Both the position numbers and the translations under genes were made by a program. Under the pieces are notes generated by a model, which ran no database searches, was not told where the DNA came from, and saw only the letters and a list, made by a program, of their open reading frames with translations. DNA of 64,000 nt from Pyrenula massariospora (Eukaryota > Ascomycota > Eurotiomycetes > Pyrenulales > Pyrenulaceae): positions 2,294,001 through 2,358,000 of the forward strand of contig JAGFMI010000003.1 in the NCBI GenBank assembly GCA_021030905.1, in the 5' to 3' direction. Below, in pieces: positions 6,482 to 33,132 of this stretch (the stretch's first letter is position 1; every line of letters starts with the position of its first letter).

Positions 6482-9400
6482 ATGAAGGTCGTTGAAGTCA
6501 TCATCGATGTGAGTCTAGACACCTCTCAATCCTAACCCAGACCTCAACTCACCTAAATCGTCACAGGGCTTCAAATCCTACGCCGTCCGCACCGTCATCT
6601 CAGGATGGGACGCCTCCTTCAACTCCATCACCGGCCTCAATGGTAGCGGCAAATCGAATATCCTCGACTCGATCTGCTTCGTCCTCGGCATCACCAACAT
6701 GTCCACCGTCCGCGCCCAGAACCTCCAAGACCTGATCTACAAGCGCGGCCAGGCCGGCGTTACTAAGGCCTCCGTTACTATTGTCTTCGATAACCGCGAT
6801 AAGTCTAATTCGCCGATTGGATTCGAGGAGTATGCGCAGATCAGCGTGACGAGACAGATTGTGCTGGGCGGGACGAGCAAATATTTGATTAATGGGCATA
6901 GAGCGCAGCAGCAGACTGTGCAGAATCTGTTTCAGAGCGTGCAGTTGAATATCAATAATCCGAATTTTTTGATTATGCAGGGAAGGATTACTAAGGTGTT
7001 GAACATGAAAGCGGCAGAGATCCTGGCGATGATTGAGGAGGCGGCGGGGACAAGGATGTTTGAGGATCGGAAAGAGAAGGCGGCGAAGACGATGGCGAAG
7101 AAAGAGATGAAGGTGCTTGAGATTGAGGGCCTATTGAAAGAAGAGATTGAGCCGAAACTGGAGAAGCTGAGGAGCGAGAAAAGAGCGTTCCTCGACTTCC
7201 AGCAGACACAGAGCGATCTCGAGAGACTGACGAGATTGGTGGTTGCACATGACTACGTGAGGGCCGGCGAGAAGCTGCACAGCGCTGGGGAAGATTTCAA
7301 GAGCAAGAAACAGCGCGTACAAGACTTGGAAGACAATGCAACAAAGCTGAAGGGTGAGATTGAACATATTGAGGACGATGTTCTCCGCGTGAAGGCAACA
7401 CGAGATAAGGAATTGAAGAAAGGCGGCAAATTTCAGGCTCTGGAGAATCAGGTCAAAGAGTATTCGCATGAGTTAGTCAGATTAGCGACTGTTCTCGACT
7501 TGAAGAAGACTAGTGTATCTGACGAGGATTTACGGCGCAAAGGCATTGAGAAGACGGTTAAAGATCTCGAGAAACAGCTGAGGGAGAAGACAGCTGCCTA
7601 CCAGAAGATGCAAACCGACTACGACCGTGCAAAAGAAGAGATCGATGCCCAAAATGCTGAGGTTGACAAGAAAGAAGAGCTTCTGTCGACTTTGCAGACA
7701 GGTGTTGCGTCGAAAGAAGGTCAAGAGAGTGGATATCAGGGACAACTCCAGGATGCCAGAAACAGAGCAAGCGGCGCAGCTACGGAACAAGAGCAAGCGA
7801 AGCTGAAGATTTCGCATCTTGAAAAGCGTGTCAAGGAAGACGAGCCTCGTGCGAAGAAGGCCAAAGAACAAAACTCAGGGCTTCTGAAAGACTTGGATGG
7901 GCTTCGGGCACAAGCCAAGAAACTTGAAACGGAGTTGTCGAAGCTTGGTTTCCAGCCAGGTCGAGAAGAGGAAATGCATCTTCAGGAAATTAGCCTTCAG
8001 AAATCTATCCGATCTCTAAAAGAAGAAGCTGACGGGCTCAGACGAAAAGTCGCCAATGTTGATTTCAACTACTCGAACCCAGCACCAAATTTCGATAGAT
8101 CAAAAGTCAAAGGTCTAGTCGCGCAGCTCTTTACTCTCGACAGCAACAAGACGCAAGCTGGTACCGCTCTTGAAATATGCGCTGGAGGTCGGCTATACAA
8201 CGTAGTTGTCGACACAGCGGAGATTGGCACACAGCTACTTCAGAAAGGCAAACTAAAAAAGCGAGTCACAATCATTCCGTTGAACAAGATTTCTGCTTTC
8301 AAGGCGTCAGCTGAAAAGATTGGCGCTGCGAAGAAGCTTGCTCCTGGGAAGGTTGACCTTGCTTTGGAGCTAATCGGATATGACCGAGAGATTCAAACAG
8401 CTATGGACTACGTCTTCGGCTCGACGCTGATATGCCAGGATGCCGAGACAGCGAAGAAGGTTACATTTGATCCGTCGGTAAGGCTAAAGAGCGTCACTCT
8501 GGAAGGAGACGTATACGACCCCTCTGGTACCTTGTCTGGTGGGAGCTCTCCCAACACCAGTGGTGTGCTTGTGATTCTTCAACAGCTGAATGATGTCAAC
8601 AAGCAGCTCGGGCAGCAAGAGCGGGAACTCGCAGCGCTACAGGAGACTATGCATAAAGAAAAGAAAAAGCTGGATGCCATGCGAGCAACTAAACAAGAAC
8701 TTGATCTCAAGGCGCACGAAATCAAGCTCACCGAAGACCAGATCAACAGCAACAGCTCGTCATCCATTATCCACCAGCTCGAATCTATGCACGAAGAAAT
8801 CAAAACCCTGAAGTCAACCATCACCGATGCCCAGGCTAGGCAAAAAGTCGCTAATGCCGACATCAAGCGCATTGAGAAAGACATGTCAGAATTCTCCTCT
8901 AACAAAGATTCCAAGCTCGCCGAGCTTCAGAAATCTCTCGACGCCCTGAAGAAGACCATGTCAAAGTCATCAATCGCGGTCAAAACCCTCCAGAAAGAAC
9001 TGCAAGGCGCGCGTCTCGAGTCCGAACAAGCCTCCACAGACCTGACAGCTGCAGAAGAGCAGCTTGCAGAAGCCGAGCAGACTGGCAAGGCACAACAAGA
9101 GGAAGTTGACTCCTTAATAGAAGAGCAACGGCGCATCAAATCTGACCACGATCTCGCGTTCGCTCAGCTTGAGGACGAGAAGACGAAGCTCACCGGCTTC
9201 GACGACGAATTAAGGGACCTCGAGGCCGCCAAATCCGCCAAGTCGAAACGCATCACCGAAGAGTCACTCGAGGTCCAGAAGCTTGGGCACACAATTGATA
9301 AAGCCAAGAAAGAGGAGAGTGCTGCAGCGACCCTCGTTGCGGCCCTAGAGAAAGAACATGACTGGATCCTCGACGAAAAAGACTCCTTTGGCAAAACTGG

Positions 9401-10155
9401 CACGGTGGATGACTTTGCAGGCAAGAATCTGGGCGAGTCCCGCGCGAGTCTGAAGAATGTTACGGAACGCTTCCAGGGAATGAAACGGAAGATCAATCCT
9501 AAAGTCATGAATATGATTGATTCGGTCGAGAAGAAGGAAGCGAGTTTGAAGAACATGATGAGGACGGTGATCAAGGATAAGAAGAAGATCGAGGAGACGG
9601 TCGTTTCTCTTGATGAGTATAAGAAGGAGGCTCTGCTGAAGACATGGAGGCAGGTGAATAGAGACTTTGGAAATATCTTTGCAGAGTTGTTGCCGGGGAG
9701 CAACAGTGCGAGGTTGGACCCGGTGGGCGGCGAGGGAGATTTGGATAGCATCCAGAAGGGACTTGAAGTGAAGGTTTGTCTGGGGAAGGTATGGAAGCAA
9801 AGTTTGACGGAGTTGAGTGGAGGGCAGAGGTATGTCTTATGTTCATTTCCGTGACTCTCTAGCACTAACATAGCTGACGCTTGGGATTAGGTCGTTGATT
9901 GCCCTCTCGCTTATTCTCTCGCTACTGCAGTTCAAGCCTGCGCCGATGTACATCTTGGACGAGGTTGACGCAGCGCTGGACCTGTCGCATACGCAAAATA
10001 TCGGGAGACTGATCAAGACTAGATTTAAGGGGAGCCAGTTTATCGTCGTCAGTTTGAAAGACGGCATGTTTCAAAACGCGAATCGAATCTTCCGGACTAG
10101 GTTTATGGAGGGAACAAGTGTGGTGCAGAGCTTGACGCCAGCGGATCTGAGATAG
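6482..10155 (+). CDS. smc2: Condensin subunit SMC2
   Basis: Exons 6482-6508, 6567-9829 and 9891-10155 encode 1184 residues, the usual SMC2 length. The first exon encodes only MKVVEVIID. Residues 32-39 form the Walker A motif GLNGSGKS, typical of SMC2 in that it has N where other SMCs have P. A long coiled coil follows, a hinge of about 150 residues lies near 510-670, then the returning coil. The second intron splits the ABC signature LSGGQR at its Arg codon, and the last exon carries Walker B ([12 protein letters not shown]) and the D-loop. SMC2 pairs with SMC4 and the condensin non-SMC subunits to compact mitotic chromosomes in the nucleus. All catalytic motifs look intact. This is a single-copy housekeeping gene and gives good evidence for a conserved chromosomal core here. 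Confidence 0.97.
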
Positions 10156-16542: not shown

Positions 16543-16930
16543 ATGCCTTTGATCCATATTATATTGTTTGCCTTCAAGCCTGCAACAGAGCAGACACTGA
16601 TAGTCGATGTAAGTAGAGTAACTTCGCCTGTGCATACCTAGGCTGAGCGTACTACACCAGGTCTGCCGTCGCATCATGGCTCTTAACACCTCATGCATCC
16701 ATCCAGCGACCCAGAAGCCGTATCTAAAAGTGTCTGTAGGAAAGGACAATAGCCCCGAAGGACAGCAAGGGGGCCTCACGCACGGTTTTGTCATGGAATT
16801 TCAGAATGAAGCGGATAGGACATTTTACTTGAAAGAGGATGCAAGTCATCTAGAATTGGAGAAATTTCTGGCCAATGTCGATGCCCTCGAGGCAATTAGA
16901 ATAATTGATTTCGAACCGGGTGTGTTCTGA
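16543..16930 (+). CDS. Dabb (stress-responsive A/B barrel) domain protein
   Basis: Two exons, 16543-16608 and 16661-16930, with a 52-nt GTAAGT/CAG intron, give a complete 111-residue protein. Exon 1 encodes MPLIHIILFAFKPATEQT, the typical first strand of a Dabb barrel (IHIVLFxFK). Exon 2 carries KDNSPEGQQGGLTHGFVMEF and DRTFYLKEDASHLELEKFL, the two most conserved blocks, and ends VDFxxGVF-like (IDFEPGVF). Dabb proteins form small dimeric barrels; some act as polyketide cyclases or other small-molecule enzymes, others have stress-related roles. The gene ends 15 bp before the convergent aldo-keto reductase, so the two 3' ends overlap as transcripts. Placement beside reductases and an NRPS-like enzyme suggests a metabolic role, by inference only. 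Confidence 0.85.
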
Positions 16931-16945
16931 AAGAGGTATTCAAAT

Positions 16946-18123
16946 CTAGTCTCCGTATAATTTGATTCCCCACAACTCGTTGAAGACAGTTGTAGTTCGT
17001 CCTTCATCGCCATCCATCTTGAGCGAGTTCAGAGCCTTGAAGTCTTCTGCAGGTAGCTTTCTCACAGCAAGATTGGATCTGATTCTCTCTGGTGTCTGAC
17101 TCTTCCCAAGCGGTATCGTACCACGCATGACTGCCCAGCTTTGCAAGACCTGGCCTTCTCCCATATCATTCTTCTTGGAGACCTCTTTAACAATGGGTTC
17201 GTCGAGTAGTCTGGTTCCTCGCGGAGTAAACGGGACATATGCAATGCCAGCATTGCCATCGTTGTTAATGATCTCGATCTTATTCGGAGCGAAGGGGCTA
17301 TATGCTAATGGTAGAATGTCTTGGGCTTTCATGAATGACAGAACATTGTCATTAGGCAACCAGGGATGGGACTCAATCTGATTTGCAGAGATCGGAATGT
17401 CTGTGGAGTAAGGAAGAATCTCTTCGAGTTGCGCAATTGCAAAATTGCTCACACCGATAGCCCGACATTTTCCAGATCGAACAAGCTCTTTTAGAGCATT
17501 CCATGTAGGTACGAAGCTACCATTGCCGCCGCGCGATGCTGCTATGCTTGAAGGCGAGTGTTCAACATCGATCAGATCTTTGCCGTTCTTGTCAGTAGCG
17601 ATCGCAAGATCTTGTGGACCAGCACCCGGGAACGCTCGAGCGGAGTCGATGTTGTCTCTCGCATGAATAGCAACTGGCCAGTGCACTAGGTACAAATCGA
17701 TATAGCCGAGCTTCATATTCCGGAGAATCATGTCCAGACATTTTCCAACATTGTGCGGTGCGGCAAACTGTGGCCAGAATTTGGAGGTGATGAAGATTTC
17801 TTCACGTGGGACTTCTGACTCTCTGATTGCTTCACCGACCTCTTCATCGACCTTTGAGACTTGTCAATGGAGCTTGCATGAAATGGCGAAAAAGCATACG
17901 CCATAATCCCAGGCACAGTCGAGGTGTCGACATCCAGCTTGCAGTGCAGTCAGTACTGCGGATTTGCACCATCCTGTTCCGCCTAGAACATGGTGAGTAT
18001 ATAGGAAGCGTCAATGACGATTGAATGTTGGGTCATACCAGCTTGCCATGTACCGAAGCCGACGCTGGGGACCTTTACGTCTCCAGAAACTGTTTTCATA
18101 CGGAATGACTTGGGCAGAGCCAT
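16946..18123 (-). CDS. Aldo-keto reductase (first of two)
   Basis: Three exons on the minus strand, 18123-18039, 17982-17900 and 17851-16946, encode 357 residues. The start MALPKSFRMK leads into VPSVGFGTWQA, the first barrel strand. The catalytic tetrad is present: D50 and Y55 in LDCAWDYG, K80 in ITSKFW, H113 in LVHWP. IGVSNF near residue 191 and the C-terminal cofactor segment (IPLGKSQTPERIRSN) are also intact, so the enzyme should be an active NAD(P)H-dependent carbonyl reductase. Between the LVHWP strand and the next helix lies an enlarged loop with TDKNGKDLIDVEH, as seen in fungal glycerol-dehydrogenase/aldehyde-reductase-type AKRs. Convergent with the Dabb gene. Probable role: reduction of an aldehyde or ketone made by the neighbouring enzymes (inference). 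Confidence 0.9.
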
Positions 18124-19919
18124 ATCATCCGGCACAGACTCACCCATCCTTCTTTCCGGTGTGCTATCTGAGTCAACGACTTGAAATTTTGTCGATAAGG
18201 TTGCTTCGAATGGAGTTTCATAAGCCTCCTGGTGCCAAATGCGAAGCCCGGGATGTCTCCGACGGTATATTGTCAGCTCGGGGTAATTGTTTGCATTGGT
18301 TCTGGGAAAAGAGGGTTCCCAAGACCAACGCTATAGTTCACTTGCCGTAGCCATTTGAAGGAGTCGCCGCCCGCGTTGACCCGGGGCTCCTAGCTGTATT
18401 TCATGGCAAGTGCCGAGGAATAAGAGGGACCTGTACAGAAACCTTGCCGAAAAGGCATAACAAGTTGACTTAACTGCGTTGGCCATAATTAAAACTAGAT
18501 GTCTAACCAAATGACAGCTTTCTCAATATAGCAAAATCCCCACTGAAAAATGATTGAGCTCCCGCTGTTGACACAGCACCTTGTTCAGGGAAAAGAATGC
18601 GCACTAGAAGGGATCAACGGCGACGTTTCTGGCGATCACGTAAAACAATATCGCTCATTAGTAATTGACTTGCGCCTCGGCAACTTTTGACATAAGCAAC
18701 CGGTATGAGGCGCACTCGTCAACTCGTGCATGCGTTTGGTCAAACGAGTTGTTCATTGTGATAGGATTTTGATGCTGGCATTGTCGGGGAGGGCTGCAGA
18801 GGCTCAAGATACACGATAGGCCAAAATGTTCCACGTAAGCACTACACCGGCGATGTTGAGGCTGAAAGGATCTATGAGATCTGGACAAGCAGGTATAATG
18901 TTGACGGCAGGAGAGTCAAAGGTTACGCAAGGATTTGAGGATTGCATGTCGGAGGCACAGACCACTGGCTGCAGGCTCCGCGCTTGGCAGTAATTTCCGC
19001 CCCCATGGAGGGACGATCAGCCGCCCGCCGTTAGATCAATGGGAACCCGCACATTTTAGTGCATCAGAGACATTATCCAGAGAACAACCTTGAATGCCAT
19101 CTCAGAAAGCCATGACTTATGTGATGGGATACTTGATCATGCTCACCTGCTCTTAAAAGGCAAGCTTGTCGACTATGGATCCGGAGGATCGTCGATCTTA
19201 CGTGCTCTCGAAGCTGATGTCCACTATTGCTTAGGAATCTAATCAAGTTTCATAGCTGACAAGCCAATTAAGCTTAATACTCGGCAGCACGGACAGCGAT
19301 AAGACAGGGCTAGAACGTGGAGTGCATTAGTATTACAAGGGGTTTCTGGTAAGCCAGCAGCGACACCAACAGGAACCAGGCAATTTAAGAACTCGAAAAC
19401 GCTTAAGCGGCATGCTGTTGGCGATGTCGGGAAGATTCAATCCGCAGGCTTCCATCGCATTCAAACCCTGTATATCTCTAGCCGTAATCTGGAGATCCTG
19501 AGAGACTAGACTTTTGACGTAAAGGTCGGTGAGAGATTTCAAGAGTGTGACCGCATGAGAGGTTGTGACTTTTTTTCTCGTGACTGGGACACGGTCCTGG
19601 AAATCCACCACGACAACTTGCGTTGCAACGTCTCCTTAATTAGGTTTCGGTAACTATAGAGCGACCTTTCTGGGGCTACTACCGCAAGAATGATGGAGCG
19701 TGAGAGACAAATGTTCAAGGAAAGGTCCATTTGATTGATCGTGAAAAGAGCCTAAAGTAGGAAGGGCTTGCAGCATAAGATTCTTTGATTTTGGAACTGG
19801 AATAGGTGCAAATTCTCCGCGTTTTTTGCTCTTCGGCCTGCCGTGTCCGCCAAACCCAATTGCCGGAACCCGTGCCATCTCGAGAACGCGTAAACATAGT
19901 TTGCCGTTCATGCTTTTGC
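18124..19919. other. Gene-free stretch between two minus-strand genes
   Basis: About 1.8 kb. Minus-strand open frames at 19333-19611, 19539-19730 and 19654-19911 lie just after the hydroxylase stop. They overlap in different frames and have no recognisable domain. The one at 19911 starts nine bases after the upstream stop, which is not how fungal genes are laid out. This may be decayed coding DNA or 3' UTR. Confidence 0.4.
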
Positions 19920-21135
19920 TTACAAGGTCTTTATCCTAACATTGTCGGCCTCAGGATATGTTGGTACAACAAAGCTAGTTGGATCATCCTCGATCTTGGC
20001 AAGTTCGACCTTGCGCTCTGCTGCGATACGGCCCCGCTCATAATGGGCTTTGGCGTCTTCTTTGTCAGTCCAGTAGGTACCAAGGACCTTGTCCCAAAAG
20101 CTGGTGTAAATGCTGTAATTGTGCTTTATTCCCCACGATTGATGATGAAGGTCATGAAAAGCGGCATCATTATCACTAATCAGACGAAGTGGGTTCCAAG
20201 GCAATACGTAACCACCATGGTCGAAAACAACCTTCAAAGTTGACCCAACATAAAACCACATACCTTGCCGGACACTCAAACCGGAGAGGCCGAAGGCTAC
20301 GGCCATACCACAAGTGTCTAGAAAGAAGCCTTCAAGTGGATGAGTATAAAGTGCTCCATAGGCATACGGAACATATAATCGATGATGGACAGCGTGAACA
20401 TTTTCTAGTGCTCTGTTAATTCAGAGTCTTCTTGCTAGTATCGAACTTACTGTATAGCCATCGATTCTCATGTTGCCAACGATGACCGAAATATTGCCAC
20501 GAGTCCGATGCGAAGATGGCGACCCCGAACTGTATCGTCGGAATGATGTACCAATAGATGACACTTGCAATGGTAATTTCCCAATCCGCAAAAGCGGGAA
20601 CTGTAATTTTGTCTCCAGTCCAATCCGTAATTGTCTGTGTGAGGTGGCCATATTTTCCTCCTATAAGCGCCGCGGCAGCGTTGGGCCGATAGACAGCAAG
20701 ATTCTGCGCTAGGCCTTTGGCATCCAGACCGATCAATGCAAGTATGTTTGGGATAGCTCGTTGCGTGATGCGTATTCGCCGAGCCCATACAGCGACATCA
20801 TATTCCTCCGAGCCCTGAAGATCACCACTGCCCAGATAACCAAGAATAATTCCAAGAAGCGTCTGGATAGCTTGGTTGCGCAAAACGCCTTTAATACATT
20901 CTGATCGTGTCACAGTGTTGCGGGTCAGCTCTTCAGCTGAAGTGTGCTGCTTGTACTTGTCTAAAAAGATCGTCCCGTCGATGTAATCGAAGATGACTGA
21001 TCCAACCCAATACGCAAGAACCGGAAGGATCAGTGATAAATGCAAATCTGAGATTCCCGGTATCAAAGGGGGTACAGGATGGAGAGAATATGACGGGAGG
21101 GGAGGAAGATCTGATGCGTAGGTGAAGTTAGACAT
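19920..21135 (-). CDS. SUR2-like fatty-acid hydroxylase superfamily protein (sphinganine C4-hydroxylase-like)
   Basis: Two exons, 21135-20451 and 20410-19920, joined across a very short 40-nt GTAAGT/GAG intron, give 391 residues. Several membrane helices are visible, with PAFADWEITIASVIYWYIIP before the first His cluster. The di-iron histidine boxes are complete: H218-RWQ-H222, H234-AV-HH238 and H314-DL-HH318, plus a conserved FDHGGY segment. The order and the context HHQSWGIKHNYSIYTSFWD match the yeast Sur2 family, ER enzymes that hydroxylate C4 of the sphingoid base to make phytosphingosine. Fungi carry one housekeeping SUR2 and often extra copies in biosynthetic clusters. The N-terminus, with an about 50-residue extension before the second helix pair, and the location next to an NRPS-like reductase make the second case plausible here. 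Substrate unknown. Confidence 0.88.
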
Positions 21136-23091
21136 TGCAGAGGCCGAAATTTAATGGTAGATGCAGAGCATTCATCAAAGGCCATGCAAAAGGCGGGGGG
21201 GAGATCTATATCAGTTTCTGAAAAGGCAGACAGTAGGAAAGTAATATGGCAAAGTACCGAGCAACCCGGAACATCAGGAAAAACGAGTGATCTTCAAGAG
21301 GGGCGAGGCGATTGTCCCTGCACAATCAATTGGGCATAGATACAGGGTCCGCACACTGGCCGACTACGCATGGCGATCAAGTGTGTTTCTGCAGCATTCC
21401 TTACCGGAGGAGCCCTTGTAGCTTTATGGCGAATGGAAAGGCAGAGTTGGTGCGGGACGACAGGCTCTTCTAGGCCACTCGGCAAGCCGGTCGATTCGTG
21501 AAGTCCACACTATGTATTGGGGTTCACTCCGCTTTAGCCCCGACAAGCCATCCAACAGACACATGATGTTCTGTACGTTCTTAACGTGTCATTCTTTCTC
21601 CAAGATCAAGTCAAGGCTTGACGTCGTTTTTGTCACTTGTAATTTGAAGGGGAACCCGCTAGCGCGCTTTGCCCGCTCCACTATTCAGATCAAACAGATG
21701 AGCTCAGGTGGTATCATGATGCGCTAGGAAGCCTATAGCCAGAAGCTAGCGTTGGAACGAGTCGAAAGTTCATTGAGGGGCGAGAGGGATCAGGAAGAAG
21801 TCTGCTGTCGTAATTGAGCGGCGTAGTGACTGTGGTTGGCTCGGGGACATTTGGGATAAATCCTCTTCTCAATCTCACGCCAATTTCTGTAGCTGCTTGT
21901 GGCCTTGATGGGCTGCCGTGGCCTATTTCGGTTGTCAATTGTTGGTGTTGCTGGTCTCGATGTGCGTACTGTCCATACACTTTGGGTACTCCGGAATGAA
22001 TCGCGTTGGACTATTCTCTGACTGGACTAGCGCCTGTTCCTCCGCTGCCGGACGTGTCTCTTTGGCCTCAACTCGCCTAACTTACGAGGCTAGAATTTCG
22101 ATTTACTTCACATTTGGGTGACTGCTCTTTGCATTCGATCCACAGCGCTTTCTCATAGGGCCCGTTGCTTCCGTCCCACTGAGCATTTACAGACACGGTA
22201 TGTCGACAACTAGTGCAGGGCCCCATGAACCTGTCATTGAGGCACCAACATAACGTGCTCCTTTCCTCAAGTCTTCCCGATGACGTTCTACAGAACGTTC
22301 CTAGCCCCATCATAAGTTTATACTGCGTTTTTTCATAGTCTATGGATGCCACTGGTCTTTATTGGATCTACAAACTGTGTTTTTGACCGTGTTCCCGTGC
22401 TGTTGCATTAAATGTCCACATTGTGTCAGATCTTTGTACGGAAAGGATCCAGTCTGTCAAGCTTGTTACGTCTTGTGATAGTTCCGGAAATGATGGCCTG
22501 TTTCTTTTACGACAAGGGCCGTTGCTGATGGCGGTGCCATTGAGGTGAACATCACCGCCATTTGGATCGTTTTTTCGTGCTCAAATTCCGACCCGTTGGA
22601 CCGTACCACGCGCTAGATGGCCCCTTCCAACGAACTAGAGTCCAGCCTAATCTTAGGGTGTAATCCCTTAAGCATTCAGAATGGCAATGGTTGCAATTTA
22701 CCCCGACCGTGTTACCCTGGACTCATCACGCTCTACAACTATTTCTGCATTCCGACATGTTCCAGCAGGAGTGGGTCTTCAAGACTCTGTGTGCATGGCC
22801 AACATTTACCATTGAGCAGGGTCAGCGTAAATCCCAGGTCTCGGTCCTGACAATGGATTTGTCGAGGCATCTGCATTTAGATCGACCCACAATGCTCTCC
22901 AAGAGAGGCTTGTCGTCCGATTTGTGCTGTCTTGGACTCGATTCTGGCCCTCAGACTTACATATATTCGTCGGCCGCTACTGCAATTTGTCCATATCTAA
23001 ATCGTATTTGCTGGATTTCTTAGTGTCTACCGGATGGTTAGGGGGAAACCCACACCCAGAGACCACATAGCGGCCTATCCTGCAGTTGGCA
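21136..23091. promoter_or_regulatory. Divergent promoter region between hydroxylase and NRPS-like gene
   Basis: About 2 kb separate two divergent starts, so control elements for both genes must lie here. Open frames at 21714-21980 and 22077-22352 (minus) and 22617-23023 (plus) have no domain; the minus pair might be a decayed gene. The plus frame just upstream of the NRPS-like start does not resemble a condensation domain, so I do not extend the NRPS upstream. No regulator-binding motif could be assigned by eye. Confidence 0.4.
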
Positions 23092-26000
23092 ATGTACGCT
23101 TTGTCAGAACATATTCGACAAGCTTCTGATTACGTGGCGGCAATCAGTCCAAGTGATCTAGAACAGATTTACCGATGGAATTCCGCTCGTCTTGAACATG
23201 TCAAGGAGTGCGTTCATGATTTGATCCTCCAAAGAGCCCAACAACGATTATCGAAGCTTGCGATCCGCTCGTGGGAAGGTAATCTCACATACCATGACCT
23301 TGAAAATTTATCTACGAGACTGGCCGTGCATTTACGGCATTTAGGCGTTCGGCGACGATCTGTCATTCCGTTTAGCTTCGAGAAATCAAAATGGGCTGTC
23401 GTCGCAATAGTCGCCATTCTTAAAGCAGGTGGAGCCTTTGTTGCAATTGATCCATCACATCCACACGAAAGGATTCAGTCAATCCTTAATGATGTTCGTG
23501 CAGAACTGGTAATTTGTGCACCTCGGCATGCACGTTTGTTCCAACGCTTTGTCCACAAAGTCGTGTCTCTCACGGCCAATATCTATCAGCAATTTTCGGA
23601 GGAGATAGATCTTCAGGACTTGGACATAACTCCAAAGGATACAGCATGTATCCTTTATACATCAGGTAGTACGGGTCGGCCTAAAGGGATCGTTCTATCT
23701 CACTCTGCGCTTTCTACAATGGCGGAGACACATGCCCAAGCTCTACATGTTAGTGCCGAGTCTCGAGTCTTTCAATATGCCGCGTATGCTTTCGATGTCA
23801 GCGTCATGGATATTTTTACCACTTTATACCGCGGAGGCTGTATTTGCATCCCGTCGGAGGCAGAGCGAAAGAGTGATATTGTTGGGGCTATGAACAGATT
23901 ACAGGTGAATTGGGCCGATATCACACCAACGGTAGCTTCTTTGCTCAACCCGGACGAGGTGCCCGGATTGAAGACACTAGTTCTCGCGGGAGAAGAAGTC
24001 ACACAAGAGCTCGTTACACGTTGGTCGGAAAGGGTGCGCATGATCAATTGTTATGGGCCAGCTGAAAGTTCTGCTTGCACGGCGTATGAGTATCCTGATC
24101 ATAATTCTACTAGTCGATGCATTGGTCGCGCAATGGCTGGAGCACGTTGTTGGATCGTTGATGCTAATGATCATGACCGTCTGATGCCTATCGGAGCCAT
24201 TGGAGAGCTCGTCGTGGAAGGCAATACACTTGCTGACGGCTATCTCAACAATCCTACAGCAACTGAAGCTGCGTTCGTGCGAAACCTTGCATGGCACAAG
24301 GGTAGCCGATGTCCGTTATTCTATAAGACCGGCGATCTTGCGTATTATGATTCCGATGGTTTAATCATTTTCGTCGGAAGGAAGGACTCACAAGTCAAGA
24401 TTCGTGGCCAGCGTGTCGAATTGAGCGAGATTGAACATTATCTGTCAACGCATTGTCAAGTGGCCAAGAGCGTCGTGAGTTATCCCAAAGATGGGGCTTT
24501 TGCGAAGAAGCTTGTCGCGGTCGTCGAGCTTGAGCATGAAACCGCTCTGCCTGAGTGTAGCGAAATTCATCTAAGTCGAAACAATGCTGACGGCGTCTAC
24601 TCGAAGATTCTTACCAGCTATGTAGCAAATGTCTTGCCATCCTATATGGTGCCGGAGACTTGGCTTTTTGTCGAGGCTTTTCCCTTATCAACCTCTGCGA
24701 AAATTGATCGAAAACGGATCAGCCTCTGGCTTGAATCGGTCAGCAACCATTGCGCGGCGCAGCTTCTTCATACAGCAGCAGAGATTTCACCTCGGATCCC
24801 TCCACACGATGAGCTGGCACTGGATATCAGTACTAGAGTGGCGGAAATTGTCACTCGCGGTGATACTGCAGCCGTTGATGCCCTCAAAGACCGTAACTTT
24901 GAACTAGCTACCATGGGAATAGACTCCATCCAGCTAATGACCCTGTCGACACTGTTATGTCACCAATTTGGGGTAAAGGTCGGGGTAGAGAAGCTCACCC
25001 GGAACGGTATAACGATCCAGGACTTGGCCGAGGAAGTCCGTGGAAATGACTCTAGCTCTGCAGAGACAATCTTCACTCGCACGGATCTGCTTGGTGAAGT
25101 CGAATCATTCCGTATGGAAATGTTGCAATGGAAGCTCGGCACCGTGGCTATCGACCAGACTTCTCAATCATCCATGACGGCCTTTCTCACCGGAGCTACC
25201 GGCTTCCTTGGCACACATATCCTGAAACTTTTGCTTGGGAGTTCGAGGATAATGAAAGTCATCCTGCACGTTCGAGCTGGAAGCGAAGCCAAGGCTCTCA
25301 ATCGTATAATTAGATCCGCGAAGACGGCCCGTTGGTGGCACAACCGTTTCCGTGCAAAACTAGAATGTTGGATCGGTGACCTTGGACTTGCCAATCTTGG
25401 CTTAACAGGCTCACAGTGGGCTTGTCTGACCGGCGACGGGTCTCAAAAGATCGACGTGGTCATTCACAATGGAGCTGCTGTGCGGTGGAATGTCGGCTAT
25501 GACTCTCTCGAGGCTGAGAATGTCACTTCTACCAAAGAGCTCCTTCGAGCTATTTCTCAGCGCTCACACCGTGCAAATTTTGTCTACATCTCTGGAGGCC
25601 AGAAAAATTTAAGTCTTGATGAAGAAGATGATGGAGACAATCTCCGCCAGGCTACAGCATTAAACGGATATAGCCAAACAAAGCTTGTTTCCGAGGTTGT
25701 AGTTAAGGACTTTGCTCGCCATGAGCGAGGGAGATCTCACCAGGTGTCGATTATCAAGCCTGGATATATCATCGGAAATCCGGAAGACGGACTTGCCGAT
25801 ACGAATGACTACATTTGGCGCCTTGTCGCTGGGGCTTTGGAAGTTCAAGGTTACGACAAGAGCGAAGACAAATCATGGCTTTTCATCGCAGATGTAGATC
25901 GAGCCGCTTCTACAGTGCTGGACGCTGCCTTACACCACCGCGATCCGTCTCCATGGGTGACGAAAATACTAGATGGTACGACAATGGAGAGGTTTTGGCA

Positions 26001-26463
26001 GACTATAAAGCGATGTGGTTATCCAATGTCACCGCTAAATCGGCAGGAGTGGCTGACTTCGATGCGCAAAAACGTTGAGGCAAAAGGAGAGGAGCATCCG
26101 CTGTGGCCGGTATCGTACATGCTCGAAGACGGTACTGAGCGGCTCAGCTCTGGCTGCGAGATGCTAATAACTGTGTCTGATGCGAATGAAGAACGTGTCA
26201 AGGCTGCAATCCGACGAAATGTTGAACACCTACAAGTCAAAGAATACCTGCCGAGACCTAGGCTGCTTAATGACTTGAAAATGAAGCTGCATCTCTCGAA
26301 CGCTGAATCTTGGGGACACCCCTCGCGGAGCGCTTTATGGACAATTGAGAGGAATGGTGACCTCTCAAAGCTCGTTGGAATCTTTATTCGGGCATTGTTT
26401 CCTTTGGTATATGCTCCTCCACTTGTTTTGATGATGCATTTATGGCAGCGGATCCGTGATTGA
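23092..26463 (+). CDS. Stand-alone NRPS-like enzyme: adenylation - thiolation - reductase
   Basis: One exon of 1123 residues from the ATG at 23092; the two codons before it start at a TTG. The adenylation domain spans about residues 40-545: TSGSTGRPKG at 190-199, YGPAESS at 321, KTGDLAYYDSDG near 412-423, catalytic Lys in STSAKIDR at K537. The thiolation domain has ATMGIDSIQL with the phosphopantetheine Ser at S612. The reductase (thioester reductase, extended SDR) has TGATGFLG at 700-707, a Ser in VYISGG at 834 and Y860-xxx-K864. There is no condensation domain, so the enzyme should load one acid as AMP ester, hold it on the carrier and release it as aldehyde or alcohol with NADPH. FDVSVMD at 234-240 keeps the Asp that usually binds an alpha-amino group. 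The last about 25 residues form a hydrophobic helix, unusual for the class. It resembles an L-aminoadipate reductase layout but is shorter and lacks the N-terminal region of that enzyme. Confidence 0.93.
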   Translation: MYALSEHIRQASDYVAAISPSDLEQIYRWNSARLEHVKECVHDLILQRAQQRLSKLAIRSWEGNLTYHDLENLSTRLAVHLRHLGVRRRSVIPFSFEKSKWAVVAIVAILKAGGAFVAIDPSHPHERIQSILNDVRAELVICAPRHARLFQRFVHKVVSLTANIYQQFSEEIDLQDLDITPKDTACILYTSGSTGRPKGIVLSHSALSTMAETHAQALHVSAESRVFQYAAYAFDVSVMDIFTTLYRGGCICIPSEAERKSDIVGAMNRLQVNWADITPTVASLLNPDEVPGLKTLVLAGEEVTQELVTRWSERVRMINCYGPAESSACTAYEYPDHNSTSRCIGRAMAGARCWIVDANDHDRLMPIGAIGELVVEGNTLADGYLNNPTATEAAFVRNLAWHKGSRCPLFYKTGDLAYYDSDGLIIFVGRKDSQVKIRGQRVELSEIEHYLSTHCQVAKSVVSYPKDGAFAKKLVAVVELEHETALPECSEIHLSRNNADGVYSKILTSYVANVLPSYMVPETWLFVEAFPLSTSAKIDRKRISLWLESVSNHCAAQLLHTAAEISPRIPPHDELALDISTRVAEIVTRGDTAAVDALKDRNFELATMGIDSIQLMTLSTLLCHQFGVKVGVEKLTRNGITIQDLAEEVRGNDSSSAETIFTRTDLLGEVESFRMEMLQWKLGTVAIDQTSQSSMTAFLTGATGFLGTHILKLLLGSSRIMKVILHVRAGSEAKALNRIIRSAKTARWWHNRFRAKLECWIGDLGLANLGLTGSQWACLTGDGSQKIDVVIHNGAAVRWNVGYDSLEAENVTSTKELLRAISQRSHRANFVYISGGQKNLSLDEEDDGDNLRQATALNGYSQTKLVSEVVVKDFARHERGRSHQVSIIKPGYIIGNPEDGLADTNDYIWRLVAGALEVQGYDKSEDKSWLFIADVDRAASTVLDAALHHRDPSPWVTKILDGTTMERFWQTIKRCGYPMSPLNRQEWLTSMRKNVEAKGEEHPLWPVSYMLEDGTERLSSGCEMLITVSDANEERVKAAIRRNVEHLQVKEYLPRPRLLNDLKMKLHLSNAESWGHPSRSALWTIERNGDLSKLVGIFIRALFPLVYAPPLVLMMHLWQRIRD

Positions 26464-27324
26464 AGGAGACGAGCCGGCAACGGCTTTTATGGTCCAAACA
26501 GGACCTAGAACAGTGAAACCGCGGTATTATCATCAAGGGCATTTTCATCGAACGCTCCTCTCACAACTTAAATGAACCCCCTTCAGCGGCGAGTGGCTTC
26601 CCTTTGAAAATTTTAGATCTCGAATTACATCTGTAAAGATTTTCAATTCACAGAGCGAAAAAGGATTTAAAGATTGAAAAACAAGGCAGTCATTTATCTC
26701 GAGGTTTTGCTGTAACACAAAAGCAGTGGGCTCAGTAGATATAGATAGTGGCCACAAGGCATTGCATGACAGTGCTCGTAGAGATTCCCACCAAGTAGCC
26801 AGTAGAGCTTCCCCGTCTGCTCAACCTCACTTTTGTCTGTGGAGGTAGTCTGATGCTGTTGTGTGTTTAAGCGCTCCCTCTTCTGTAGAGTTATGTCATC
26901 TCCTGTAACGTCCATAGTAGTCTTAATTTAATCTCATGCCTCGAGTGTTGATCAGACTTCGCGGCAGCGTTCTGGAGAAAGCATCCCTAACATTTCCGGA
27001 GCTGCCGACACCAGCCCCTCTGTTCGCCTCCTCCATCTCGGGAATACATAAGGACCAAATCTTCCCTCTAACTTGGCAACTTCGCTCTTTCCCTGGAGCC
27101 ACCTTCGCCTGGCTGCATAATTGTTGTCAACGCCTTTGTATACCCCGTCATATCATCCAACCTCGGTAGATCTACCACATTTCACCCGTACACTAGACAC
27201 CGCCAACAACATATCCCCAAATACCGATACTAAGCACGACCACCTTTTGGAAGTTTATTACGGCTCCCAAATAAGCAATCTACCATCGGGCGTTGCTGAC
27301 ACCTACATGCTACAGGATCAAACG
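26464..27324. other. Gene-free stretch
   Basis: About 860 bp between the NRPS-like gene and the second aldo-keto reductase, both on the plus strand. Short frames only; the last part is the likely promoter of the reductase. Confidence 0.5.
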
Positions 27325-28781
27325 ATGGAAAGCTACAGCGTGGATACGGACATCAAGGTATGTGGTACAATGACCTTAAATAGGCCTTTTCTCTCTTCTC
27401 TCCAATCTCCTTCCCTTCAGGTACACCTGTTCATCTCAGTGCTCGCTCGGGATGCTTGCGAGTGTCATGTCCATGTGTAGTAAATGATAAGCCATTGGGA
27501 ACGTGGTAGGCTGCAGGTCTGAAAGTGACGTGTGGCGCGGTAGTTAGCGAACGGCAAGACGATGCCGGCGATCCAGCTAGGGGTATATGAGATGAGTGAA
27601 AAGGAAACGACAAAGGCTGTCGAGTGGGCAATTGAGGTGAGTTGCCTTGAATCTGCTCTGACGAGGATTCTATCTAGTCTCTGAGATTGATCAAAAAGTT
27701 GACATTTGTTTGTAGGCCAAGTATAGAGGGTGAGCTCCCTTTGCTTCTCGTTCCTATCTGGCTACTATTCAAGTCTCTAGGCGAGGCACGCCTTTGCCTC
27801 TCTTAGACTAGACTTACCTTTTCATTGCTTCCTGTTCTAAACGTTCGACCCGACTAAGCTTGCCCTCTCCCCACCCCCCCAGCTTCGACTCGGCCTCCTT
27901 ATATGAGAACGAACACGCCGCCGGCCTGATCATCGCTTCCTATCAAGCCTTAAATCCATCTGTACCTCCCATCCACTTCACCACCAAGCTCAGCCCCTAC
28001 ACGCCTCCTTCCGAGGTCCCGTCCTCAATTCTGACTTCTCTCCGCCTCTCCCACCTTCATACCATCCCTCTCTACCTCATCCACTCTCCGCATGGCGGCC
28101 AGGCCGCGCGCCTTTCCACATGGAACTCCATCTGCGATGCCATCGACGCGGGCCACATCAGAAGTGGCGGCGTCTCGAACTTTGGGATAAGGCATCTAAA
28201 GGAGCTGATCGAGGCGAAGCCAAAGTATTTGCCGCTAGTCAACCAGATCGAGATGCACCCCTTCATCTATAGGACCAGGAAGGAGTTGGTGGACTTTTGC
28301 GGGGAGCATGGCATTGTAGTGCAGGCGTAAGTGGACTACTTGGGCTTTGTTGGGCATGAGCTGACTGGCCAAAGATATGCGCCGTTGACGAGAGGCGAGA
28401 GGTTGGACAATGTGACTCTCAAGCAGTTAGCTGCGAGGAAACGATGCAGTGTTGCGCAAATACTGGTTAGATGGAGCTTGCAGAAAGGGTAAGCCGGAAG
28501 CTTTCCTCTAGTGGCATTCGAGTCATGGCTGACTTGCTGGATGACTAGGTTCTGCGTGCTGCCAAAGAGTGTGAAGAAGCAGCGCATTTTGGAGAATTGC
28601 AACGTGGCGGATTTGCAACTGAGCGAGGACGAGATGGAGGAGCTGGATAGCTTGGATGAGGGTTTGTGCACCGGTATGTTTGAGACCTCCGTGCTGCGTA
28701 CAAGCTGGGACAGGGAAAAAAGAAGCGAAGAATACTGCTGCTGACTTAAACATAGACTGGAATCCGCTTGACGTCGAGTAG
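27325..28781 (+). CDS. Aldo-keto reductase (second), seven exons
   Basis: Exons 27325-27357, 27544-27636, 27716-27729, 27883-28326, 28375-28488, 28549-28673 and 28756-28781 join in frame to 282 residues. Exon 3 is only 14 nt. The tetrad is complete: D49 and Y54 in FDSASLYENE, K82 in TTKLSPY, H114 in LIHSPHGG. SGGVSNFG, VNQIEMHPF, QAYAPLTRG and the cofactor block LPKSVKKQRI follow, ending in TDWNPLDVE. This is the compact prokaryote/plant-like AKR form of about 280 residues, different from the 357-residue enzyme at 17 kb, so the two are not recent duplicates. It should reduce aldehydes or ketones with NADPH. Position just downstream of the NRPS-like reductase suggests a role on its product. 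The unusual exon number makes single junctions less certain, but phase and consensus agree at all six. Confidence 0.85.
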
Positions 28782-29651: not shown

Positions 29652-31550
29652 ATGGCAGATAGACCGGCCAAGAAAGCCAAGCTCGACCCTGACAATGACC
29701 ATCCGCTGCAGACCGCTTCTGTGAACCCCAAACTCGTCCGAAGCCTACGGGCCGGGTTCTTGTCTTCTCTGCAACGGGGTGTAAGTCCACCGCCGCGAAA
29801 AGCAGCGGACAATGTGGATTCTGTCCCAGAACCAAAGACTGGTCTCTTGGAGGAGCCGATGCACCAAGCTTCTGAAGACAAAGCGGGGCCATTTCGGCCT
29901 GAGCAAGCAACGACTGCTACGATGGAATCGCTTGCGTCTGGGAAGGAAAATGTCTCTAAGGTCATCAGATCTCCATTTCAATTGACGAGAATCAGAGACT
30001 TGCCAGCCGAGGACAATCAAGACACGGTTAGTATTGGCGATCTCATCTGCGACCCCATGATTAAGGAAGTATGGTTGTTTGATTATCTATTCGACCCGGA
30101 TTGGATCGTGCAAAATCTCGACCCCGACACTCAGTCTCTAACGAAAATTGTTCTCGTCCATGGCTCATGGCGTGCTGAGGAAAACAATCGCATTCACATT
30201 GTCGATGCCTGTTCTCGCTATCCTTCCATGTCTCATGTCACGGCCTATATCCCCGATGCTTTCGGAACTCATCATACAAAGATGATGGTGCTCTTCCGAC
30301 ACGACGATACATGCGAGGTTGTCATTCATACCGCAAACATGATCCCTCAAGATTGGAGAAACATGACTCAGGGTCTCTGGCGAACTGGGCAGTTGCGGCG
30401 GCTATCGCAGTCGCTGGACTTGAGCTCTCCAGTAAACTCGATAGCGACACCCGTGATCAAAGATACTCCAAACGAAGAGCTCGGTGATATGCAAACCTTC
30501 GGAAGTGGAGAACGCTTCAAGCATGATCTGCTGCTTTACCTGAAAGCCTACACAGATAAATCGGGCAAACCAAAACTTTCAGACTTGGTCAAGCAGATCG
30601 GGTTGTACGACTTCTCTAGTGTAAGGGGAGCTCTTGTCGCATCGGCCCCGAGAAAGATCCCCTACCATGCAATCCAATCGAAAAGGCCATTATTTGGATG
30701 GCCTAGCCTGCAACGTGTCTTGCACAACGTTCCTATGCCTGCTCCCAATCCAGGCGAGGCAGCTCATGTTGTCGCCCAGGTGTCTAGCATCGCCACCTTG
30801 GGATCAACAGATAAATGGCTTACAGAGATGCTGATACCCTCTCAGAGCACAGTGTCGACTTCTACAAGAACTTCTAAAGATACTACCAAGCCAGGCTTGT
30901 CAGTTCTATATCCCACGCCTCGGACAATACGGAACAGCTTAGATGGCTACAGATCAGGGGCCTCGATCCACTTGAAGCTTGACTCTGCACCAGCGCAAAA
31001 ACAAATCGCGTGGTTACGGCCGTACCTGTGCGATTGGAGCAGGTCAAATTCCGAGCCTGATGTAGAGTCTCTGAGCGCTGGAAGATCGATCGCTGCACCT
31101 CATATCAAGACATACATTCGATATCGGTCATCTCCCTTGCCACCTCCATCCTCAACTCTTTCTCAAGGAGATGGTGAAACGAGTCCCAGAAATGCCCGCC
31201 AAGAAATTGACTGGGCACTGCTTACCTCTGCAAATCTCTCTACTCAGGCGTGGGGAAGCGTCGGCAAGGACGAAGTGGTGATCAAGAGCTATGAGCTTGG
31301 AGTGCTAGTCTGGCCCGAGCTCTATGGTTCTGGTGCTAAAATGGTGCCTACCTTCAAGAAAGACGCTCCGGATATTGTTGAGAAAGATGATGGAGAGAAT
31401 GATCAAGTCCTCATTGGTCTGCGAATGCCTTATGATCTGCCATTATGTCCGTACAAAGCTGGTCAAGACCCGTGGTGTGCTACTCTGCGAGCCGGATATA
31501 CAGACCCGGATCGTTTCGGAGGAGTTTGGCGCGGATCCGGTGGCAGGTAA
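29652..31550 (+). CDS. tdp1: Tyrosyl-DNA phosphodiesterase 1
   Basis: A single exon of 632 residues. The two HKD half-motifs that define the family are present: H208-x-K210 in GTHHTKMMVLF with the following VIHTANMIPQDW, and H484-x-K486 in APHIKTYIRY followed by LLTSANLSTQAWG. The leading about 125 residues are a low-complexity, basic tail (PAKKAKL resembles a nuclear localisation signal). TDP1 removes tyrosine peptides left on 3' DNA ends by trapped topoisomerase I, in the nucleus. Length and motif spacing fit fungal homologues. One in-frame ATG at 29652 starts the protein. As a DNA-repair gene it marks the edge of the upstream metabolic cluster. Confidence 0.95.
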   Translation: MADRPAKKAKLDPDNDHPLQTASVNPKLVRSLRAGFLSSLQRGVSPPPRKAADNVDSVPEPKTGLLEEPMHQASEDKAGPFRPEQATTATMESLASGKENVSKVIRSPFQLTRIRDLPAEDNQDTVSIGDLICDPMIKEVWLFDYLFDPDWIVQNLDPDTQSLTKIVLVHGSWRAEENNRIHIVDACSRYPSMSHVTAYIPDAFGTHHTKMMVLFRHDDTCEVVIHTANMIPQDWRNMTQGLWRTGQLRRLSQSLDLSSPVNSIATPVIKDTPNEELGDMQTFGSGERFKHDLLLYLKAYTDKSGKPKLSDLVKQIGLYDFSSVRGALVASAPRKIPYHAIQSKRPLFGWPSLQRVLHNVPMPAPNPGEAAHVVAQVSSIATLGSTDKWLTEMLIPSQSTVSTSTRTSKDTTKPGLSVLYPTPRTIRNSLDGYRSGASIHLKLDSAPAQKQIAWLRPYLCDWSRSNSEPDVESLSAGRSIAAPHIKTYIRYRSSPLPPPSSTLSQGDGETSPRNARQEIDWALLTSANLSTQAWGSVGKDEVVIKSYELGVLVWPELYGSGAKMVPTFKKDAPDIVEKDDGENDQVLIGLRMPYDLPLCPYKAGQDPWCATLRAGYTDPDRFGGVWRGSGGR

Positions 31551-31973: not shown

Positions 31974-33132
31974 ATGGAAACCGGCATCCCTCCGGGAGAC
32001 ATCGGCTTCATTGGCGTAGGCGCCATGGGTCGGCCCATGCTTGGCCATCTCGTCAAGAAATTCACCCCTGAAAAGCACATTTACATCTATGACATTGTTC
32101 CATCTCTCGTTGAAGACATCTGCAAAGAACATCAAGATGCCGTATCACCAGCGGAGAATCCCAAAGCTATTGCGGAAAAATGCGTATGCACATCCCCTCT
32201 CCTTCCACCATCCTCGTTTCAACCCCCGTCATTCACTTAGCCAAATCCTAACAACTTCCCGGTAGAGCATAATATTCACCATGGTCCCCGAAGGCCCCGA
32301 CGCCCGCGCCGTCTACCTCGACCCCACCACCGGCCTCCTCTCCACCCCCCACCCCGCCCGACTCTACATCGACTGCTCCACCATCGACCTTGCCACCTCC
32401 CGCGCCATCGCCGCCGCCGTCCACCACACCCCATCCCCCTCTGCACAATCAACATACATCTCCGCCCCCGTCTCCGGCGGCACCCTCGGCGCCCGCAACG
32501 GCACGCTCTCCTTCTTCCTCGGCCTGCCCCCCACATCCCCCCTCCTCCCCCCCCTCACCACCCTCCTGCAACCCATGTCCCGCACCCTCATCCCCTGCGG
32601 CGGCCCCCCAACATCCGGCCTCGCCGCAAAACTCTCCAACAACTACCTCTCCGGCCTCCTCGCGATCCTGGTCTCCGAGGCCTACATGCTCGGCATGTCC
32701 GCCGGCCTCTCCCCCGTGATCCTCCACCGCGTGTTCGCCGCCGGCACGGCCCAAAACACCATCTCTGACAAATTCTGTCCGGTGCCGGGGGTGGTGCGGG
32801 ACGCGCCGAGTAGTCGGGGGTATGAGGGGGGGTTTCGGGTGGGGCTGATGAGGAAGGATTTAGGCCTGGCGGTGGAGATGGGGAGGGAGGGGGGCGTGGA
32901 GTTAAAGAGTCAGGGGTGGGGGGTGGGGGTTTATGAGGGGGCGTGTGGGGAGGGGGGGTGTGTGGGGAGGGATAATCGGGTGGTTTATCGGTTTTTGGGG
33001 GGTGTGGAGGAGTGGGAGGGGAGGGGGGAGTGGGAGGCTGGGGGGTATGGGGAGGGGGATAGGGGGGAGGGGAAGGAGGAGGGAGGTGGGAAGGGGAAAG
33101 AGGTTAGTCCGCATGTGGAACGGCCCGAGTGA
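31974..33132 (+). CDS. 3-hydroxyisobutyrate dehydrogenase-like protein
   Basis: Exons 31974-32183 and 32266-33132, with an 82-nt GTATGC/TAG intron carrying a CTAAC branch site, encode 358 residues. The Rossmann head is GDIGFIGVGAMGRPM. The substrate block is APVSGGTLGARNGTLSFF and the catalytic Lys sits in GLAAKLSNNYLSG; both are hallmarks of the beta-hydroxyacid dehydrogenase family. The segment YEGGFRVGLMRKDLGLA is the conserved C-terminal helix. The enzyme would oxidise 3-hydroxyisobutyrate to methylmalonate semialdehyde with NAD in valine breakdown, or a related hydroxyacid. The N-terminus shows no clear mitochondrial presequence. After about residue 310 the protein turns into a Gly/Glu/Lys-rich tail caused by an abrupt switch from C-rich to G-rich coding sequence near 32780, so the last about 40 residues are probably disordered. 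An alternative 3' intron cannot be excluded. Confidence 0.85.

What the first reader, a model, noticed from the sequence alone, without database searches (positions are those of the whole stretch)
16543..28781. Candidate small biosynthetic cluster around an NRPS-like A-T-R enzyme
Five enzyme-type genes lie within 12.3 kb: Dabb protein, aldo-keto reductase, SUR2-like hydroxylase, adenylation-thiolation-reductase enzyme, second aldo-keto reductase. They are followed by the housekeeping gene TDP1. The A-T-R enzyme would release an aldehyde, the two reductases could process it, and the hydroxylase acts on aliphatic chains; together they suggest a hydroxylated amino alcohol or sphingoid-like small molecule. 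I know of no described cluster with this exact set. No transporter or regulator was seen, which weakens the case.
Basis: partly seen in the sequence, partly recalled or inferred. Interest (0 to 1): 0.72.

Follow-up and report, generated by a model that had tools for sequence, protein, structure and literature searches.

The report
Fungal amino-acid reductase gene neighbourhood
A fungal chromosome carries an intact enzyme gene that probably turns an amino acid into an aldehyde, next to an aldehyde-reductase gene and an extra, diverged copy of a sphingolipid-hydroxylase gene; this looks like a small, otherwise ordinary natural-product cluster of unproven function.

Summary
The five genes are real, intact and at the stated coordinates. 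They are probably not one unit. A smaller core is better supported: ATR (23092-26463, one exon, 1123 aa), SUR2-like (19920-21135) and AKR1 (16946-18123), perhaps with Dabb. AKR2 (27325-28781) differs in family type and codon composition and sits next to TDP1; it is probably a bystander.

New fact: the SUR2-like gene is not the fungus's only one. Another copy (47-48% identical) lies on contig C30 beside the TCTP gene and looks like the ordinary phytosphingosine enzyme. The window copy is a diverged paralogue with its histidine motifs intact, placed divergently with ATR.

The ATR A domain has an alpha-amino-acid code and groups with A domains of multimodular NRPSs. Best reading: amino acid to amino aldehyde, then reduction by AKR1 or self-condensation, with SUR2w as tailoring enzyme or spare target. 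Gene content is shown; the chemistry is inferred. Synteny and co-expression could not be tested, because no other fungal genomes or RNA data were on hand.

The parts
16543..16930 (+). Dabb-domain protein, 111 aa, exons 16543-16608 and 16661-16930
Evidence: Spliced protein matches PF07876, E 3.4e-13 over residues 5-107.
16946..18123 (-). AKR1, aldehyde/aldose-reductase-type aldo-keto reductase, 357 aa, exons 18123-18039, 17982-17900, 17851-16946; converges on Dabb with 15 bases between the stop codons
   Evidence: Model; Pfam E 1e-36 on the main exon; nearest solved chains 8yp9, AKR1B10, aldehyde reductase (best 60 of 163 shown); next match in the own genome 40% identical
19920..21135 (-). SUR2w, diverged sphinganine C4-hydroxylase paralogue, 389 aa, exons 21135-20451 and 20404-19920
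   Evidence: FA_hydroxylase E 1.2e-15 on the 3' exon; 47-48% identical to the C30 copy, co-linear from the first residue, histidines 218, 222, 232, 235, 236, 291, 312, 315, 316 shared by the two
21136..23091 (.). Divergent intergenic region between SUR2w and ATR (1,956 bp); no condensation-domain remnant found; not repeated elsewhere in the genome
   Evidence: tblastn of 12 NRPS ORFs from the own genome: best match in 21100-23200 has E 0.23 (no condensation-domain profile was run on DNA); the ORFs 21422-21727 and 22664-23023 have no Pfam match; 21150-23080 is single copy
23092..26463 (+). ATR, mono-modular NRPS-like adenylation-thiolation-reductase enzyme, single exon, 1123 aa
   Evidence: AMP-binding, PP-binding and NAD_binding_4; amino acid adenylation domain and thioester reductase domain over their curated cut-offs, 385.6 vs 317.4 and 221.7 vs 213.35 bits; specificity residues DVMDVACACK
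27325..28781 (+). AKR2, second aldo-keto reductase, 282 aa, seven exons; judged a probable bystander
   Evidence: Model and GC3 0.710; Pfam E 2.2e-33; nearest solved chains YvgN, then putative morphine dehydrogenase, prostaglandin F synthase, 2,5-diketo-gluconate reductase (best 60 of 161 shown)
29652..31550 (+). TDP1 (tyrosyl-DNA phosphodiesterase), housekeeping flank
   Evidence: Pfam E 1.9e-134; start codon located
6519..10155 (+). SMC-family gene (SMC2-like by recall), housekeeping flank on the other side
   Evidence: SMC_N and SMC_hinge on the ORF 6519-9854; the ORF 9874-10155 continues with what looks like the C-terminal motif, read by eye

Best explanation
A small specialised-metabolism locus centred on an A-T-R enzyme. 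Step 1 (domains shown, activity inferred): the A domain activates one alpha-amino acid and loads it on the carrier. Step 2 (domain shown, activity inferred): the terminal reductase releases it as an alpha-amino aldehyde. Step 3 (inferred): AKR1, an aldehyde-reductase-type enzyme, reduces the aldehyde to an amino alcohol, or the aldehyde condenses with a second aminoacyl unit or with itself as in AsaC/PvfC/ATRed enzymes. Step 4 (inferred, weakest): SUR2w, a diverged duplicate of the sphinganine C4-hydroxylase, either hydroxylates an aliphatic chain of the product or serves as a spare, tolerant copy of a sphingolipid enzyme that the product hits. Core: ATR + SUR2w + AKR1, perhaps Dabb; AKR2 is probably outside.
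For: ATR is intact with all three domains over Pfam cut-offs and two over NCBIfam cut-offs. The first residue of the specificity code is Asp and the last Lys, as for alpha-amino acids (role of these positions in PMC10512218). SUR2w is a second copy; the other copy sits beside TCTP and matches yeast Sur2p better (245 vs 181 bits; 51 columns where only C30 agrees with yeast, 25 where only the window copy does, yeast sequence recalled). ATR and SUR2w share one divergent intergenic region. AKR1 resembles aldehyde reductases. Dabb, AKR1, SUR2w and ATR have GC3 0.46-0.50, AKR2 0.71. TCGGGGTAA occurs 3 times in 64 kb, upstream of Dabb, AKR1 and ATR (chosen after the fact, and absent from the 1 kb upstream of SUR2w).
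Against: No synteny or expression data. No transporter or regulator domain among the 25 ORFs scanned, and no second backbone gene among them. TDP1, the 541-aa gene and the DUF3431 exon also have GC3 0.49-0.51, so composition does not separate cluster from flank cleanly. The 9-mer was picked from many: block-shuffled promoters gave on average 0.2 such 9-mers, at most 2, and it also occurs in two fetched loci elsewhere (L001, L033). Duplicates of sphingolipid genes are common in fungi: 29 of 59 subfamilies show duplications (PMC13161914, passages). The role of SUR2w is a guess. Asp at the fourth code position does not suggest a long aliphatic side chain (recalled rule).
Confidence: 0.5

Rival explanations
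1. Chance neighbourhood: five unrelated enzyme genes between the housekeeping genes for an SMC protein and TDP1. ATR acts alone (for instance making a pyrazinone by itself), and the AKRs, SUR2w and Dabb have separate jobs.
For: AsaC alone is enough to make pyrazinones in yeast (PMC10512218). Aldo-keto reductases are common (at least 30 loci) and NAD_binding_4 loci number at least 33; two AKR / NAD_binding_4 pairs within 12.3 kb exist away from this locus. No transporter or regulator domain seen. Sphingolipid gene duplicates are common (PMC13161914).
Against: A diverged SUR2 duplicate sharing its upstream region with the ATR gene is less likely by chance: about 0.009 that a given gene falls within 5 kb of one of 33 NAD_binding_4 loci (hand estimate from the counts; question chosen after seeing the answer).
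Confidence: 0.35
2. Sphingoid-like product: ATR reduces an amino acid with a long chain to an amino aldehyde, AKR1 reduces it to a 2-amino alcohol, and SUR2w hydroxylates the chain.
For: Right enzyme types in one place; SUR2w is a true SUR2 paralogue and not merely a distant FA_hydroxylase (48% to the C30 copy; the other two matches reach 30-31%).
Against: No enzyme for making a long-chain amino acid in the set; the code DVMDVACACK carries a charged residue in the side-chain pocket (position assignment recalled); the A-T-R products described in the papers seen come from ordinary amino acids.
Confidence: 0.12
3. Self-protection: the ATR product inhibits phytosphingosine formation and SUR2w is an insensitive spare copy, like the extra ceramide synthases of fumonisin producers.
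For: Second, diverged, apparently catalytically intact SUR2 beside a backbone enzyme. Precedent of insensitive duplicates: PMC11209526 and PMC11796371 (search listing and start of abstract only).
Against: No inhibitor of Sur2 from an A-T-R enzyme is known to me; none of the 15 papers listed describes one by title or abstract start.
Confidence: 0.08

Closest known systems
AsaC, A-T-R enzyme of the aspergillic acid (asa) cluster of Aspergillus sections Flavi and Circumdati (PMC10512218; abstract, results and discussion read)
   Same: Mono-modular A-T-R without a condensation domain; code begins with Asp and ends with Lys; expected release as amino aldehyde
   Different: Sequences could not be compared (AsaC not held). 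The parts read name a P450, AsaD, as tailoring enzyme, not a SUR2-like hydroxylase.
LnaA of Aspergillus flavus (PMC8403587, one passage; its partner LnbA recalled) and g306 of Arthrobotrys oligospora (PMC10373296, passages)
   Same: g306 is A-PP-TD of 1,053 aa against 1,123 aa here; A-T-R build of LnaA recalled
PvfC (Pseudomonas; as told in PMC10512218) and ATRed (Xenorhabdus indica; PMC7586950, start of abstract in the search listing)
   Same: Minimal aldehyde-releasing A-T-R enzyme
   Different: Bacterial. A peptide-pattern scan of the prokaryote genome collection confirmed no relative of this ATR (19 pattern matches, none passed); it finds close relatives only.
Sur2/BasA sphinganine C4-hydroxylase
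   Same: Co-linear with the C30 Sur2 copy, all three histidine motifs kept
   Different: Extra copy, shorter C-terminus (389 vs 455 aa), positions changed that the C30 copy shares with yeast (recalled yeast sequence)
ATRR choline/glycine-betaine reductases (PMC11050029, search listing and abstract start; the choline link recalled)
   Same: A-T-reductase enzyme
   Different: Second reductase domain absent here: only one NAD_binding_4 stretch

Membership tests
Mono-modular NRPS-like A-T-R enzymes | One amino-acid adenylation domain, one carrier domain, one C-terminal thioester reductase domain, in that order | tested here: met
   Residues 48-385, 600-647 and 699-925 of the 1123-aa protein (one search gives 55-392, 607-654 and 706-932 on the ORF, which starts 7 codons earlier); TIGR01733 and TIGR01746 over cut-off
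Mono-modular NRPS-like A-T-R enzymes | No condensation domain | tested here: met
   None in the Pfam scan of the ORF; no similarity to own NRPS ORFs upstream
Mono-modular NRPS-like A-T-R enzymes | Reductive release of an amino aldehyde | not testable with these tools
   Nucleotide-binding TGATGFLG and Y-x-x-x-K (YSQTK) present by eye (motif meaning recalled)
Pyrazinone/pyrazine-forming enzymes (AsaC, PvfC type) | Product formed from two amino acids by one A-T-R module | not testable with these tools
   Needs expression and mass spectrometry; AsaC sequence not held
ATRR betaine/choline reductases | Two reductase domains | tested here: not met
   One reductase domain, protein ends at 26463
Sur2 sphinganine C4-hydroxylase | FA_hydroxylase family with three histidine motifs, similar to Sur2 along its length | tested here: met
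   (against the C30 copy, itself called Sur2 and recall)
Sur2 sphinganine C4-hydroxylase | Acts on sphinganine/ceramide at C4 | not tested
   No assay; a closer-to-yeast copy exists on C30
Fungal biosynthetic gene cluster | Backbone gene plus linked tailoring genes conserved together or co-expressed | not testable with these tools
   No other fungal genomes or RNA data; scans of the viral and prokaryote collections gave nothing
Fungal biosynthetic gene cluster | Usual accessory genes (transporter or pathway regulator); common but not obligatory | tested here: not met
   No such domain in any of the 25 ORFs of at least 100 aa between 12786 and 29438; many small clusters lack one (recalled). A SLAC1-type transporter at 4.5-5.8 kb lies beyond the SMC gene.

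The most novel reading that the evidence does not exclude
A minimal cluster in which an A-T-R amino-acid reductase was recruited together with a duplicated, diverged SUR2, so that either a sphingoid-like hydroxylated amino alcohol is built without serine palmitoyltransferase, or a Sur2-directed inhibitor is made with a spare SUR2 as shield.
Probability: 0.12. Interest if true: 0.7.

Novelty: new member of a known kind. Interest (0 to 1): 0.36.

Why it matters
Mono-modular A-T-R enzymes are widespread in fungi and few have known products (recalled; the papers seen name a handful). A SUR2 paralogue linked to one would point to a product that touches sphingolipid biology, an important antifungal target area. 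If the linkage is mere chance, this is an ordinary orphan A-T-R gene.

Tried and rejected
Rejected: a truncated multimodular NRPS with a decayed upstream condensation domain. The A domain does group with A domains of multimodular genes, and the alignments reach into the linker before them, but nothing condensation-like was found upstream.

Rejected: SUR2w as the fungus's only (housekeeping) Sur2, since a second copy exists. Rejected: ATRR-type betaine reductase (single reductase domain). Rejected: repeat origin of the two intergenic stretches tested (18130-19900 and 21150-23080 are single copy); the stretch 12.8-16.5 kb was not tested for repeats.

Led nowhere: peptide-pattern scans for ATR relatives in the viral and prokaryote collections (10 and 19 pattern matches, none confirmed). 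CGG-N(0-15)-CCG sites: no spacing was shared by two core promoters. A solved-structure search with SUR2w gave no match up to E 1. Literature: the papers listed include none whose title or abstract start describes an A-T-R plus SUR2-like cluster (only 5 to 25 papers were listed per call); 'sphinganine hydroxylase' occurred in none of the 20 papers listed. PMC13065033 (Verticillium ANN cluster): a search of its text for hydroxylase, aldo-keto and thiolation gave no occurrence.

Rows dropped: in the A-domain tree L021_0 and L022_0 (same loci as L005_0 and L008_0) and L002_0 (distant), leaving 15 of 18. L001 and L004 gave no hit at E 1e-8 and were never in the set. Tree labels such as 'ATR' and 'PKSNRPS' for other loci are mine, from ORF length and co-located matches; their domains were not scanned. 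The k-mer control shuffled blocks of two bases and is not a full dinucleotide shuffle.
Full report
WHAT IS THERE. The window is part of contig C27 (2294001-2358000) of a 37.8-Mb, 33-contig genome. Introns and gene content suggest a filamentous fungus; its name is not given. Between an SMC-type gene (6.5-10.2 kb) and TDP1 (29652-31550) lie the five genes of the finding, all intact: Dabb (+), AKR1 (-), SUR2-like (-), ATR (+) and AKR2 (+). Four were spliced by hand; ATR is a single exon. Intron ends follow the GT...AG rule and every reading frame stays open to its stop. The first Dabb model was one base off and out of frame; it was corrected. Start and end of the finding fit the Dabb start codon and the AKR2 stop codon exactly. 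All 25 ORFs of at least 100 aa listed between 12786 and 29438 were scanned against Pfam; beyond the five genes none has a match.

THE A-T-R ENZYME. It has 1123 residues with AMP-binding, PP-binding and NAD_binding_4 domains. The curated amino-acid adenylation and thioester reductase models are passed (385.6 against 317.4 bits, and 221.7 against 213.35). Ten specificity residues, placed by motif anchors on an alignment with 17 own-genome A-domain rows (two of them duplicates), read DVMDVACACK (PheA numbering recalled). Asp first and Lys last fit an alpha-amino acid; the amino acid itself cannot be named. The nearest A domain in the genome, in the gene at C30:2097k (39-41% identity), reads DVQDVASITK and also has Asp in fourth place, as does C29:744k (DVLDIGGICK). 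In a tree of 15 A domains, ATR lies in a group of seven with A domains from C30:2097-2111k, C5:98k and C18:301k (support 95/98). A domains of the short A-T-R-like genes at C6 and C7, of C30:1222k and of two hybrid-type genes form a separate group of five (100/100). One further A-T-R-like gene, C30:601k, falls on the same side as ATR but outside its group, on the longest branch. The order inside the group of seven is not resolved, and long branches are flagged. So this enzyme probably derives from the multimodular type rather than from the other small reductases of the genome. No condensation-domain remnant was found upstream (best match E 0.23).

THE SUR2-LIKE GENE IS A SECOND COPY. The whole-genome search gave five matches to SUR2w: its own two exons, one strong second copy at C30:2033959-2035050 (48%), and two distant ones (30-31%). 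The C30 copy has 455 residues against 389 and is co-linear from the first residue; both share the histidine motifs. The C30 copy lies beside the TCTP gene, its ORF has GC3 0.61, and it agrees better with yeast Sur2p: 36% over 378 positions, 245 bits, against 33% over 360, 181 bits. Among 323 ungapped columns, 51 agree only between yeast and C30, 25 only between yeast and the window copy, 94 in all three. I conclude that C30 probably holds the ordinary enzyme and the window a diverged paralogue. This is the strongest new point in favour of a special function. Against making too much of it: 29 of 59 sphingolipid protein subfamilies show duplications in fungi (PMC13161914, passages).

THE REDUCTASES AND DABB. 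AKR1 resembles aldehyde and aldose reductases (best solved chains 8yp9, then AKR1B10 and aldehyde reductase), a sensible partner for an aldehyde-releasing enzyme. AKR2 is closest to YvgN and also near 2,5-diketo-gluconate reductases, has seven exons, GC3 0.71 against 0.46-0.50 for the other four genes, and lies between ATR and TDP1; I take it as a bystander. Composition alone is not decisive, because TDP1 (0.506), the 541-aa gene (0.500) and the DUF3431 exon (0.494) have similar GC3. Dabb is a small domain with at least four loci in the genome and no known link here beyond position.

HOW UNUSUAL IS THE GROUPING. With 30 aldo-keto reductase loci and 33 NAD_binding_4 loci in 37.8 Mb, 0.64 pairs within 12.3 kb are expected and 4 are seen, two being this locus; one AKR-AKR pair is seen against 0.28 expected. 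PF07993 covers more than thioester reductases, and the match counts are lower bounds. This is mild enrichment. A word search found TCGGGGTAA upstream of Dabb, AKR1 and ATR (15865, 18278, 22698) and nowhere else in the window (expected 0.32, 1 of 100 shuffles with three or more); the 1 kb upstream of SUR2w lacks it. The word was chosen after looking: block-shuffled promoters gave 0.2 such words on average, at most 2, and it occurs in two fetched loci elsewhere. The longer form CTCGGGGTAAT occurs 14 times in the genome (8 for the same pattern read backwards), two of the 14 being 2.4 kb apart here. I treat this as a hint only.

WHAT COULD NOT BE TESTED. No second fungal genome and no expression data are on hand. 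Scans of the viral and prokaryote collections for close ATR relatives confirmed none.

COMPARISON WITH WHAT IS KNOWN. Mono-modular A-T-R enzymes are an established kind. AsaC makes deoxyaspergillic acid or flavacol without help, also in yeast (PMC10512218, abstract, results and discussion). LnaA is called a piperazine synthase (PMC8403587, passage). g306 of Arthrobotrys is a 1,053-aa A-T-R protein (PMC10373296, passages). A bacterial minimal ATRed makes a pyrazine (PMC7586950, abstract start). Bushley and Turgeon (PMC2823734, passages) note that most monomodular fungal enzymes lack a full module. The enzyme here is a new member of that kind. The link to a SUR2 paralogue is the only unusual feature. 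The searches named in Tried and rejected showed no described cluster of this make-up, within the titles, abstract starts and passages seen.

VERDICT. Observation confirmed; interpretation partly supported, with a smaller core and an open product. The most likely chemistry is amino acid to amino aldehyde, then reduction or self-condensation. The sphingoid-like product and the self-protection readings are possible but unproven.

Noticed in passing
C30:2033959-2035050 of the own genome (L010): Second Sur2 copy, 455 aa, beside the TCTP gene; probably the ordinary sphinganine C4-hydroxylase.
   Followed up: yes
window 15865, 18278, 22698: TCGGGGTAA occurs only three times in 64 kb, each upstream of a core gene (Dabb, AKR1, ATR); possible shared regulator site, chosen after the fact.
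   Followed up: partly
window 4556-5772: SLAC1-type transporter exons beyond the SMC gene; probably unrelated to the cluster.
   Followed up: no
window 19333-19635 (-): 100-aa open frame between AKR1 and SUR2w with no Pfam match up to E 0.1, in single-copy DNA. May be an unrecognised small gene or noise.
   Followed up: partly
window 59076-61553 (-): 825-aa ORF joining a GDSL lipase domain with fungal lectin stretches.
   Followed up: no
window 32266-33132 (+): 3-hydroxyisobutyrate-dehydrogenase-like exon with very high GC3 (0.83) just past TDP1.
   Followed up: no
C31:1062048-1066450 of the own genome: Another NAD_binding_4 locus with an aldo-keto reductase about 3 kb away; possibly a parallel pairing of reductive release with an AKR.
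   Followed up: no
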